From Verrucomicrobiota bacterium (GTDB lineage Bacteria; Verrucomicrobiota; Verrucomicrobiia; Limisphaerales; UBA9464): a DNA stretch of 46,887 nt. This document shows positions 2,443 to 46,887 of the stretch, one piece after another; positions within the stretch are counted from its first letter, which is position 1; each line of letters begins with the position of its first letter. The stretch spans positions 1 through 46,887 of the forward strand of contig JAFLEF010000058.1 in NCBI GenBank assembly GCA_017309115.1. Reading direction: 5' to 3'. The notes beneath the pieces were generated by a model. It saw only the letters and a list, made by a program, of their open reading frames with translations, made no database searches and was not told the DNA's origin. The position numbers and the translations under genes were made by a program.

Positions 2443-2456
2443 TCTCTAAAATCCGG

Positions 2457-2543
2457 AAGGGCGACGCTCGGCGGAGCCATCCGTAGGTGGTCTCCCCTTC
2501 TCGTCATTTCAAAGGGACGCGAACGGCTCCACAGAGCGTCGCC
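2457..2543. repeat. Solo palindromic element related to the 136-bp array
   Basis: Left arm gggcgacgctcggcggagcc and right arm ggctccacagagcgtcgccc are inverted copies with two mismatches over 20 bp, separated by about 45 bp. The arm sequence is nearly the same as the left arm of each unit in the tandem array at 14075-14744, so this is a dispersed, partly diverged member of that repeat family located 20 bp past the 3' end of the yheT-like gene. Confidence 0.65.
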
Positions 2544-2562
2544 CAATCTCTCAACCTTAAAC

Positions 2563-12905: not shown

Positions 12906-13997
12906 TCAGAGCTTGGCCATGGCTTCGTCCAGCGCCCCAATCAAAACTTGGATCGTCTCCGGCGTCTCGTCGCCCATGTTGGAGACTCGGAAGGTCGTGC
13001 CCTTGATCTTGCCGTAGCCGCCATCGATCAGGAATCCCCGGTCCTTTACCAACTTCTGCAGCTTGGCCACGTCGATGGTGCGTCCCAGACCGGCGCGCGC
13101 CCCATTGTTGAAGCAGCACAGGGTCACCGACTCAAAGCCGGCTTCCGGGAACAGCCGCAGTTCGTGCCGGGCACCCCAGTCGCGCAGCATCTGATTGGTG
13201 TAGCGATGCCGGGCATACCGGGCCTCCAACCCTTCGGCAAAGAACTCGTCCACCTTGGAGGCCAAGGCATAGATGTGCGGGATGCTCGGCGTGCTGGGAG
13301 TCATGGAGTCCTTGGCGTTCTTCTCGAACTCCACGAAATCGAAGTAGTATCCGCGATCCGCAACCGTCGCCGCCTTGGCCAGCGCCGCCGGCGACACCGT
13401 GAACACGCTCAAACCCGGCGGCAGCGCAAACGCCTTCTGCGTGCCCGCCAGCAGCACGTCGATGCCCAATTCATCAAAGGCATGCGGGACGGCCGTCATC
13501 GAGCTCACGGCGTCCACGATGAACATCACGTCCGGAAACTTCTTCTTCAGTGCCGCAATCTCCCCCAACGGCGACATCGTGCCGGTGCTGGTTTCGTTGT
13601 GGATCAGCGTCAGGGAATCGAACTCTCCTGTCGCGAGGCGGGATTCAATCGCCTCGGCGCGGATGGGCGACCCCCAGGGCACTTGGAGCGCTTCGGCCTG
13701 CTTGCCACAGCGTTTGGCCACGTCGAACCATTTGTCCGAAAAGGCTCCGCACATGCAGGTCAGCACCTTCTTGGTGGTCAGATTTCGCAGCGCGCCTTCC
13801 ATCACGCCCCAGGCAGACGAGGTGGACAGATACACCAACTGGCGGGTGCCCAGCAGGGTTTGCAGCTTGGGCTGGAGGGCAGAGTAGAGGTCTTTGAAGC
13901 CCTGCCCCCGATGCCCAATCATCGGACGGCACATGGCCTCAAAGGTTTTCGGACTAACTTCAACCGGACCCGGAATGTGCAACTTCACGTGCGCCAT
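12906..13997 (-). CDS. Class V aminotransferase (alanine/serine-glyoxylate type)
   Basis: A 363-residue PLP enzyme. Seen: HIPGPVEVSPKTFEAM and PMIGHRGQGF (substrate end), STSSAWGVMEGALRN (phosphate cup), LIHNETSTGTMSP, the PLP-pyridine Asp162 in IVDAVSSM and the Schiff-base Lys188 in LAGTQKAF, with GFLIDGGYGKIKGTTFRVSN at the C-terminus. The closest described functions are alanine-glyoxylate or serine-pyruvate aminotransferase; phosphoserine or phosphonate transaminase variants of the fold are less likely. The ATG at 13997 is preferred because the open frame upstream reads into the first copy of the 136-bp repeat array. The array therefore sits in this gene's promoter side. Confidence 0.9.
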   Translation of the reverse strand: MAHVKLHIPGPVEVSPKTFEAMCRPMIGHRGQGFKDLYSALQPKLQTLLGTRQLVYLSTSSAWGVMEGALRNLTTKKVLTCMCGAFSDKWFDVAKRCGKQAEALQVPWGSPIRAEAIESRLATGEFDSLTLIHNETSTGTMSPLGEIAALKKKFPDVMFIVDAVSSMTAVPHAFDELGIDVLLAGTQKAFALPPGLSVFTVSPAALAKAATVADRGYYFDFVEFEKNAKDSMTPSTPSIPHIYALASKVDEFFAEGLEARYARHRYTNQMLRDWGARHELRLFPEAGFESVTLCCFNNGARAGLGRTIDVAKLQKLVKDRGFLIDGGYGKIKGTTFRVSNMGDETPETIQVLIGALDEAMAKL

Positions 13998-14074
13998 AAA
14001 GAGAGCGGAAGCTTTCACAGGGTTTCTCCAGAGGCAAGGAACGGCGTTGAACCAGCTGAAGGCTCCCTCCGGTG

Positions 14075-14744
14075 GGGCGACGCTCTGCGGAGCCGTCCGT
14101 GTGTGGACTCCGGACGCGTCATTCGCCGAGACGCGCACGGCTCGTCGGAGCCTCGCCCCACCAGGGGCGGCTTCCCGCTTCCCTCTCAGCTCTCAGCTTT
14201 CCCCCCGGTAGGGCGACGCTCCGCGGAGCCGTCCGTGTGTGGACTCCGGACGCGTCACTCGCCAATACGCGCACGGCTCGGCGGAGCCGCGCCCCACCAG
14301 GGGCGGCTTACCGCTTACCTCTCAGCTGTCAGCTTTCCCACAGGTAGGGCGACGCTCCGCGGAGCCGTCCGTGTGTGGACTCCGGACGCGTCATTCGCCG
14401 AGACGCGCACGGCTCGGCGGAGCCTCGCCCCACCAGGGGCGGCTTACCGCTTACCTCTCAGCTGTCAGCTTTCCCACAGGTAGGGCGACGCTCCGCGGAG
14501 CTGTTCGTGTGTGGACTCCTGGCGCGTCACTCGCCGAGACGCGCACGGCTCGGCGGAGCCTCGCCCCACCGGGGGCGGCTTCCCGCTTACCTCTCAGCTC
14601 TCAGCTTTCCCACAGGTAGGGCGACGCTCCGCGGAGCCGTCCGTGTGTGGACTCCTGACGCGTCACTCGCCAATACGCGCCCGGCTCGGCGGGGAGCCTC
14701 GCCCCACCAGGGGCGGCTTCCCGCTTCCCTCTCAGCTGTCAGCT
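14075..14744. repeat. Array of five 136-bp tandem palindromic units
   Basis: The motif gggcgacgctc starts at 14075, 14211, 14347, 14483 and 14619, an exact 136-bp period. Each unit has a left arm (gggcgacgctccgcggagcc), a conserved middle (gtgtgtggactcc, then a gacgcgtc palindrome in most copies), a right arm (ggctcggcggagcctcgccc, inverted to the left arm with two mismatches) and a tail of Ctc/Agct-type repeats (tcagctctcagctttccc). So each unit can fold into a long hairpin of about 90 bases plus a single-stranded tail. Copy 5 has a 2-bp insertion in the right arm and a degenerate tail. Copies differ by a few variants that are mixed between units. The array separates the aminotransferase from glnB, both of which point away from it. 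Confidence 0.93.
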
Positions 14745-14797: not shown

Positions 14798-15220
<423 letters not shown>

Positions 15221-42366: not shown

Positions 42367-42722
42367 GACAATGAGAAGGTCAGGAGCGAAGCGAAAATGC
42401 GCTCACTTAGACACATCGGTGTTGACCGCCTCGGTTACCGACGTCGCCCCCTCCCGTCAGCGCCAACCTGGGTTAATCTGCGGATCACCCTTCCCCTTCG
42501 AGTTGACCGCCTTTTGTCCCGGCGGCCGGGGCGTGGAGTATTTCGAGGCCCCACATTCCATCAACGCGCCCCAAAGCGGCAGAGGGCTGCCGCACTCCAA
42601 ACGCTTCGCGATCCCTTGACCGTCTCTCCAAGTCTCCCCCTCCCCCTTTCTCCCCCTCTCCCGCTCCTTCCTGTTTTCATGTTTTCCAGATTAACCCCCT
42701 TCAGTGGAACCTCGCCCTACCC
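42367..42722. other. Intergenic region with dispersed repeats
   Basis: About 355 bases without a credible gene. It includes ggttaatctgcggatcac (atctgcgg repeat core, 42470-42487) and a pyrimidine-rich stretch (ctccccctccccctttctcc, about 42637-42656). It lies on the 3' side of sodA and after the membrane-protein gene. Confidence 0.5.
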
Positions 42723-46559: not shown

Positions 46560-46887
46560 GAGGAGCGATTCCGGTTTCGTCCCTTCGTGTCCCCGCAATT
46601 CCGCGCGTGAAGTGGTTCCGGTGAGTCAGCGCCTCGTTCCCTCGGCGGAGCCCTTCCCGCTTACCGCTTGCCGCTTACCGGCCCCCTTCCCCTTCCGACC
46701 TCTCAACTCTCAGCTCTCAGCTCTCACGGAGGGGAGGTTTTGAACCGCAGATTAAGCAGATTAACCCGACTTCCGCTACTCGGAGGTGATTCTGGTAATT
46801 TTTGGGGGTTGTCGCGCGGATTTGCCAATGTTTTGGCAGGGTCTTTGGCCGAAGTGCGTGTAGTGGCGACCTACCCTCTTCCGGGCC
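46560..46887. other. 3' flank of feoB with repeat remnants
   Basis: No gene visible. 46647-46735 contains cggcggagcccttcccgctt, then short direct repeats of cttaccgctt and ctctcagctctcag, matching the right arm and tail of the 136-bp units, so it is a decayed partial copy. It is followed by aaccgcagattaagcagatt (46743-46762), a member of the atctgcgg family. No terminator is evident for feoB. Confidence 0.5.

What the first reader, a model, noticed from the sequence alone, without database searches (positions are those of the whole stretch)
14075..14744. Five exact-period 136-bp palindromic units between an aminotransferase gene and glnB
Unit starts are spaced exactly 136 bp apart. Each unit can fold into a long hairpin plus a pyrimidine-rich tail. 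Single-base variants (attcgcc or actcgcc; gctgtcagc or gctctcagc; cttacc or cttccc) are shuffled between copies, which suggests gene conversion or unequal recombination. Solo relatives elsewhere in the window show that the element can disperse. It might be a small structured RNA array, a non-autonomous element, or a protein- or nucleoid-binding site.
Basis: partly seen in the sequence, partly recalled or inferred. Interest (0 to 1): 0.8.

Follow-up and report, generated by a model that had tools for sequence, protein, structure and literature searches.

The report
Tandem cluster of REPIN mobile palindromes
The five-fold repeat is a local tandem copying of a small mobile DNA palindrome (a REPIN) that has spread through the intergenic DNA of this uncultured Verrucomicrobia-type bacterium, and its likely mobilising enzyme lies elsewhere in the same genome between more copies of the same palindrome: a new example of a known kind.

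Summary
The array is real: five units of 136 bp at 14064-14744. Each unit is a 92-nt imperfect palindrome plus a 44-nt tail. The palindrome is two inverted halves, each beginning GGTRGGGCGA: the anatomy of a head-to-head GTAG-type REP doublet, a REPIN. It is dispersed: 76 copies in 817,546 bases of this genome, none inside a called gene. An exact arm pattern taken from this genome matches 416 times here and at most 5 times in each of 293 other genomes of the order (the relative G003, with diverged copies, was not among them). A RAYT (REP-associated tyrosine transposase) gene in the same genome lies between two clusters of this REPIN. The most similar RAYT found, 54% identical in another genus, also has a related REPIN on each side. 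Seven relatives keep the divergent glnB-aminotransferase pair with a 148-186 bp gap; the window gap is 884 bp, 203 without the array, so the array is an insertion. Tandem growth by unequal recombination or slippage is supported; an RNA role is not. Ordered REPIN clusters are a described kind (PMC3116915).

The parts
14064..14744 (+). whole tandem array, 5 units of 136 bp (fifth unit with a 2-nt insertion)
14071..14162 (+). REPIN core 1 (two inverted GTRG half-palindromes, 92 nt)
   Evidence: profile hit; fold
14207..14298 (+). REPIN core 2
14343..14434 (+). REPIN core 3
14479..14570 (+). REPIN core 4
14615..14708 (+). REPIN core 5 (2-nt insertion in the 3' arm)
14163..14206 (+). tail of unit 1: short linker, two GCTTMCC heptamers, two CTCTCAG-type heptamers; repeated at 14299-14342, 14435-14478, 14571-14614 and 14709-14744
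   Evidence: sequence; heptamer families
12906..13997 (-). class-V aminotransferase gene (PF00266), divergent neighbour
14882..15220 (+). glnB, P-II nitrogen regulator (PF00543), divergent neighbour
2456..2546 (+). solo diverged copy of the same REPIN
42697..42721 (-). lone half-arm (degenerate REP)

Best explanation
The array is an ordered REPIN cluster. One GTRG-type REPIN (a REP doublet, 92 nt) inserted between the divergent genes glnB and a class-V aminotransferase gene, and the REPIN plus 44 nt of adjoining heptamer-repeat DNA was then amplified in tandem to five units by slippage or unequal recombination. The REPIN family is non-autonomous and is most likely moved in trans, through folded single-stranded DNA, by the HUH-tyrosine RAYT encoded at G000:C33:46960-47427. 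Shown here: the anatomy, dispersal, intergenic placement, relatives without the array at the same gene pair, co-location with the RAYT, and tandem copying signatures. Inferred: RAYT catalysis on this REP, movement as single-stranded DNA, the exact recombination route, and the exact insertion point. No host function is needed to explain it, and none is shown.
For: Anatomy: outer GGTRGGGCGA on both sides of an imperfect 92-nt palindrome. Copies: 76 in 817,546 bases, 0 of 76 with more than half inside a called gene while 84.6% of the bases are coding. Arm pattern: 416 in this genome, reversed control 0; 14 of the other 293 order genomes have any, at most 5 each. RAYT-1 (74.9 bits to NF047646, E 6e-21) matches TnpA-REP 4er8 (E 3e-06), its HLH aligned to HMH and its Tyr127 to Tyr115; it lies between 5 and 7 REPIN copies, two of the five partial. 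The most similar RAYT found (54%, L262, another genus) has a related REPIN on each side (E 6e-06 and 2e-04). The four short RAYTs of this genome each have their own repeat word at their own locus. Empty site: in 7 relatives the gap is 148-186 bp; window 884, or 203 without the array. Tandem duplication: 16 of 16 multi-copy clusters have one orientation, with locus-specific periods (136; 134/134/126; 269/270; mostly 113-115) and tails.
Against: No movement was observed. The same-genus genome G003, which has 25 matches to the unit, has as its best RAYT-1 relative a gene (L266, 41%) without this REPIN at its flanks. Of 21 Pfam Y1_Tnp loci in five genomes of the genus, 0 had an arm within 5 mismatches. 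RAYT-1 was found only with the NCBIfam model and scores below that model's cut-off (74.9 against 80) and below Pfam's (19.7 against 23). Of 30 RAYT-like loci examined, 28 lack this REPIN family at the profile threshold. The two 25-nt halves tested do not fold better than shuffles on their own. The terminal motif is GTRG, not strictly GTAG. Compensatory changes, described for SBW25 REPINs, were not found. Outside the coding ends the intergenic DNA of the relatives aligns poorly, so the insertion point is not fixed.
Confidence: 0.9

Rival explanations
1. Purely local slippage duplication of an ordinary intergenic hairpin, with no mobile element involved.
For: Units within clusters are far more alike than copies in different clusters, and the duplicated tail differs between arrays.
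Against: 76 homologous copies in 817,546 bases and 416 arm matches genome-wide, a RAYT flanked by the same palindrome, and 7 relatives without the array at the same gene pair. Slippage explains the tandem step only, not the dispersal.
Confidence: 0.03
2. A structured RNA, attenuator or transcription terminator array acting in the transcripts of glnB or the aminotransferase.
For: A stable predicted hairpin on the strand folded, lying between two divergent genes. On the 11-pair RNAalifold structure the share of paired cells (0.970) is reached by only 13 of 500 shuffles.
Against: No Rfam match at gathering scores. Double-sided changes do not exceed shuffles: 2 observed against a mean of 0.9, reached by 111 of 500, on the RNAalifold structure, and 8 against 19.8, reached by 500 of 500, on the full hairpin, where the share of paired cells is also reached by 500 of 500. 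C-C and G-G mismatches are kept in 52 and 54 of 63 copies. No orientation bias relative to genes, and 21 of 73 copies lie between divergent genes.
Confidence: 0.03
3. A MITE moved by a DDE transposase through its terminal inverted repeats.
For: Inverted ends GGTRGGGCGA and high copy number.
Against: No target-site duplication was evident by eye in the 58 copies printed with flanks (not tested statistically), and a RAYT is flanked by the element in two genera. DDE genes near copies were not searched.
Confidence: 0.03
4. A host-selected binding site (gyrase, IHF or another nucleoid protein) or a chromosomal insulator, with the array kept for function at glnB.
For: REP clusters bind such proteins in enterobacteria (recalled; that BIMEs and REPs serve as binding sites is in the start of the abstract of PMC2817692 as shown in the listing). 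The array separates two divergent genes.
Against: Amplified in this genome and rare or diverged in the relatives searched, absent at the same gene pair in 7 relatives. Nothing positive was found; not testable here.
Confidence: 0.05

Closest known systems
REPIN ordered clusters of Pseudomonas fluorescens SBW25 (Bertels and Rainey 2011, PMC3116915; section on REPIN clusters and passages read)
   Same: [quoted passage not shown] each of three RAYTs there has a cluster of its own REPIN group next to it.
   Different: Here the tail is built of heptamer repeats, the terminal motif is GTRG, and no compensatory changes were found, which that paper calls common for its GI REPINs.
GTAG head-to-head REP dimers (Di Nocera et al. 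2013, PMC3733652; passages read)
   Same: Dimers with GTAG termini outside, partners mostly 20-100 bp apart, dimers reiterated in tandem with flanking DNA, heterodimers with unlike arms; Opitutus terrae, a verrucomicrobium, is noted there as highly enriched in GTAG repeats.
   Different: The consensus found here was not compared with that paper's Figure 1, which is not held, so whether it is one of GTAG-1 to GTAG-24 is open.
E. coli TnpA-REP and REP/BIME (PMC8266576; abstract, outline and passages seen; PDB 4er8)
   Same: RAYT-1 matches 4er8 by sequence (E 3e-06), with HUH and tyrosine positions aligned.
   Different: The REP sequence differs; activity is untested.
Heptanucleotide tandem repeats of Xanthomonas, Nostoc and Calothrix (PMC4692102; passages read)
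   Same: Dispersed intergenic tandem 7-mers in high copy.
   Different: Units differ (GGGAATC and GGGGAYT there; GCTTACC and CTCTCAG here), and here the CTCTCAG type lies beside REPINs more often than at random intergenic places.

Membership tests
REPIN / GTAG REP doublet | two REP-like halves in inverted orientation with GTAG (GTRG) at the outer ends | tested here: met
   Pairs 1-92 to 3-90 read G-C, G-C, T-A in 58, 58 and 60 of 63 full copies; position 4 is G or A in at least 60. The motif is GTGG or GTAG, not GTAG alone.
REPIN / GTAG REP doublet | the doublet folds as one long single-stranded DNA hairpin | tested here: met
   z -3.66 and -4.47 for two of the five window cores, 0 of 200 shuffles as good
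REPIN / GTAG REP doublet | each single REP half forms its own stem-loop | tested here: inconclusive
   25-nt halves of one unit: z -0.03 and 0.02, although four of the five 5' halves hold a perfect 12-nt palindrome
REPIN / GTAG REP doublet | high copy number in extragenic space | tested here: met
   76 copies in 817,546 bases, 0 inside called genes; 416 exact arm matches genome-wide
REPIN / GTAG REP doublet | cognate RAYT gene adjacent to REPINs of the same family | tested here: met
   L253: RAYT-1 between 5 and 7 copies; L262: a related RAYT with a copy on each side
REPIN / GTAG REP doublet | compensatory changes across the hairpin (described for SBW25, not strictly defining) | tested here: not met
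   double-sided changes not above shuffles in 63 copies of this genome
REPIN / GTAG REP doublet | RAYT cleaves or mobilises the element | not testable with these tools
   needs an in vitro single-strand cleavage assay
Ordered (tandem) REPIN cluster | tandem repeats of near-identical REPINs including flanking sequence | tested here: met
   period 136 with co-amplified tail; same kind at C67, C37 and C33
Structured RNA family (Rfam) | match to a covariance model, or covariation support | tested here: not met
   0 gathering matches in the window; no excess of double-sided changes
DDE-transposase MITE | target-site duplications and a parent transposon with the same ends | tested here: inconclusive
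   no duplication evident by eye in the 58 copies printed; parent element not searched

The most novel reading that the evidence does not exclude
In this lineage REPINs and heptamer tandem-repeat families form one composite dispersing unit: RAYT-linked single-strand processing at the palindrome seeds or expands the 7-mer arrays beside it, so that a transposase-driven element generates microsatellites and then tandem arrays.
Probability: 0.15. Interest if true: 0.6.

Novelty: new member of a known kind. Interest (0 to 1): 0.3.

Why it matters
It extends a well-supported RAYT-REPIN pair to an uncultured lineage that, judged by its nearest protein relatives, is Verrucomicrobial. It gives relatives without the array at a conserved gene pair, and a genome in which four short RAYTs each sit beside their own repeat family, useful for testing RAYT-REP specificity outside Proteobacteria. 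The heptamer association is an open question that long reads and strain comparison could address.

Tried and rejected
First search for a mobiliser with Pfam Y1_Tnp: 5 loci in this genome and 16 in four same-genus genomes, 0 of 21 with an arm. In nine further genomes the 30 returned loci gave one arm hit, near a Y1 match with an in-frame stop (L187). This looked like evidence against REPIN status until the NCBIfam RAYT model found three RAYT places that Pfam had missed (C33:46990, C38, C37). RNA reading: Rfam and pair counts, rejected. Terminator or 3'-UTR reading: gene context and orientation, rejected. An element enclosing its own transposase between split arms: 18 arms lie outside the 76 copies and were not each inspected. 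The one RAYT seen between two arms (L252) is better read as a different RAYT unit inserted into a REPIN, because a 72-nt repeat of another family lies between the gene and each arm. Binning contamination as the source of the Y1 contigs: tetranucleotide distance is within the range of own 12-kb chunks for four of five Y1 stretches and just beyond it for L242 (0.157 against a maximum of 0.150); the C33 stretch tested there ends about 27 kb from RAYT-1.

Full report
What is there. TRF reports one tandem array in the window, 14064-14744, period 136, five copies, and the spacing is 136. The fifth unit has a 2-nt insertion in its 3' arm. Comparing the units with copies elsewhere splits each unit into a 92-nt palindromic core (14071-14162, 14207-14298, 14343-14434, 14479-14570, 14615-14708) and a 44-nt tail. 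The core begins GGTRGGGCGACGCTCC and ends GGAGCCTCGCCCYACC or a close variant, so both ends, read inward, start GGTRGGGCGA. Two of the five cores were folded as single-stranded DNA: z -3.66 and -4.47, 0 of 200 shuffles as good. The tail reads as two GCTTACC or GCTTCCC heptamers followed by two CTCTCAG-type heptamers (sequence). The array lies between two divergent genes: a class-V aminotransferase gene (12906-13997, -) and glnB (14882-15220, +).

It is dispersed and amplified in this genome. A BLAST search of the own genome gave 88 matches from 40 scored of 509 candidate places. In 817,546 bases of own sequence (the window plus all or part of five other contigs) the profile finds 76 copies at 52 loci: 36 single, 11 double, 3 triple, one of four and one of five. 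None of the 76 has more than half its length inside a called gene, while 84.6% of the bases are coding by my simple codon-score caller. Of 73 copies with a called gene on both sides, 32 lie between co-directional genes, 21 between divergent and 20 between convergent ones. Relative to co-directional genes 13 run the same way and 19 the opposite way. An exact arm pattern made from this genome's variants occurs 416 times in it (control 0). Fourteen of the other 293 genomes searched in the order have any match, at most 5 each; an exact pattern favours the genome it was made from, and the same-genus genomes G002 and G003 were not in that sample. In an alignment search of 38 relatives, 11 had a match, mostly to one arm only; G003 had 25, the rest at most 19.

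The array is an insertion at a conserved locus. Of 80 fetched relatives of the aminotransferase (the best 80 of 381), 8 hold a glnB-like gene in the fetched stretch. In 7 of these it is the divergent neighbour with a start-to-start gap of 148-186 bp; in the eighth it lies about 3.9 kb off. The window gap is 884 bp, and 203 bp when the array is left out. The intergenic middle aligns poorly, so the exact insertion point is not fixed. None of the 80 fetched stretches holds an arm within 3 mismatches.

How the tandem arose. In 16 of 16 multi-copy clusters all copies share one orientation (24 of 24 neighbouring steps; orientation is the better-scoring strand of a near-palindrome), which independent insertions would not be expected to give. 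Mean identity is 91% within clusters (32 pairs) and 79% between (1,921 pairs). Period and tail are locus-specific: 136 here, 134/134/126 at C67, 269/270 at C37, and mostly 113-115 with a quite different 21-nt tail at C33. So the exact 136 is the length of the locally duplicated segment, not of the element. Within the window array 18 of 28 pairs of informative sites are incompatible with a simple tree of units, as unequal crossing-over or conversion would produce.

The mobiliser. A first scan with Pfam PF01797 gave Y1 transposases whose flanks lack the element: 0 of 21 loci in five genomes of the genus. The NCBIfam RAYT model NF047646 found four short RAYTs in this genome, three at places PF01797 had missed (C33:46990, C38, C37; the fourth, C97, had been seen) besides the long Y1 proteins. 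RAYT-1 (G000:C33:46960-47427, about 155 aa) scores 74.9 bits, below the curated cut-off of 80. It matches TnpA-REP 4er8 at E 3e-06, with HLH aligned to its HMH and Tyr127 (P0001 numbering) to its Tyr115; that these are the catalytic residues is recalled. It lies between two clusters of the same REPIN, 5 copies on one side (two of them partial) and 7 on the other. A search of 51 family genomes with RAYT-1 matched 28 of them. Of the 30 loci fetched (L271 and L290 overlap), 2 are flanked by this REPIN family at the profile threshold of E 0.01: the own locus and L262, the most similar RAYT (54%) from another genus, with one copy on each side at E 6e-06 and 2e-04. L267 and L271 have short GGTRGGGCG words on both sides of the gene, and L270 and L272 one each, without reaching the threshold. 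The others have none, including the same-genus G003 gene (41%). The four short RAYTs each carry their own repeat word at their own locus, although L252 also holds one word of the window's family, and the word of the C97 RAYT does not occur in the 817,546 bases.

Mechanism. The best-supported account is a REPIN inserted, probably through folded single-stranded DNA and RAYT-1 acting in trans, followed by tandem copying of REPIN plus neighbouring heptamer DNA. The RAYT step rests on co-location in two genera and on what is known of RAYTs; no activity was tested. RNA-level function is disfavoured: no Rfam match; double-sided changes not above shuffles; and two mismatches, C-C and G-G, kept in 52 and 54 of 63 copies. 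One measure points the other way: on the 11-pair RNAalifold structure the paired share is reached by only 13 of 500 shuffles; on the full hairpin all 500 reach it. Unlike arms (heterodimers) are frequent in GTAG REP dimers, and PMC3733652 suggests they may be protected from removal (passage read).

Relation to the known. PMC3116915 (section on REPIN clusters read) describes tandem arrays of near-identical REPINs including flanking sequence as the commonest higher-order arrangement in SBW25, with each of its three RAYTs beside a cluster of one REPIN group. PMC3733652 (passages read) describes head-to-head GTAG dimers, tandem reiteration with flanking DNA, and notes the verrucomicrobium O. terrae as highly enriched. 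The finding is therefore a new member of a known kind. Literature searches for REPIN, RAYT or palindromic repeats together with Verrucomicrobia (all 8 and 11 papers listed, 20 of 5,164 listed) showed that paper and no listed title or abstract start describing this family; PMC12306157 does not mention Verrucomicrobia in its main text. Other listed papers were not opened for this question.

What is less ordinary. Exact period-7 tandem repeats number 166 in 817,546 bases against 19 for period 8 and 24 for period 9 (381 for period 6; shorter periods are commoner), and 112 of the 166 are five related units. A 22-nt heptamer string has 445 (overlapping) matches in this genome and one in the other 50 family genomes searched. 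Twenty-two of 52 REPIN loci have a CTCTCAG-type array within 80 nt, against a random intergenic mean of 5.2 and maximum of 13 in 300 draws; for the GCTTACC type it is 7 of 52 against a mean of 2.0 and maximum of 8, so not beyond the draws. Fifteen of 60 CTCTCAG-type arrays lie more than 300 nt from any copy. Heptamer repeats are known elsewhere (PMC4692102, passages read); I have no mechanism for the association beyond speculation.

Limits. The genome is a draft of 111 contigs (completeness 95.3, contamination 3.69), so unit number in the array is unverified. Gene calls are my own. Copy statistics come from about 11% of the genome, on contigs chosen because they held good matches (C35, C37, C67, C79, C90), so density may be overestimated.

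Noticed in passing
window 46660-46730; tails of 14064-14744; genome-wide: Tandem heptamers (GCTTACC- and CTCTCAG-type) are abundant in this genome; a 22-nt CTCTCAG-type string is nearly absent from 50 other family genomes. The CTCTCAG type lies beside REPINs more often than at random intergenic places.
   Followed up: partly
L252:1143-2597: A second RAYT with its own repeat family (72-nt repeat on both sides) sits between split arms of the window's REPIN, as if one RAYT unit had inserted into a REPIN.
   Followed up: partly
L255:1081-2405 and L254 (C97): Two further short RAYTs: one with copies of a CCGTCGGCGGCTACG repeat on both sides, one with three copies of a CCCGGCTTTAGCCGG repeat on one side.
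   Followed up: partly
L073:12899-13029: A REPIN copy interrupted by another element carrying GCTACCGCACTCCAAA.
   Followed up: no
L033 and L034 flanks: Long Y1 transposases (375-394 aa) with several TGCCTGGCACTC-like words in their flanks, resembling TIR-associated tyrosine transposases; the word TTGCCTGGCACTC does not occur in the 817,546 bases examined.
   Followed up: no
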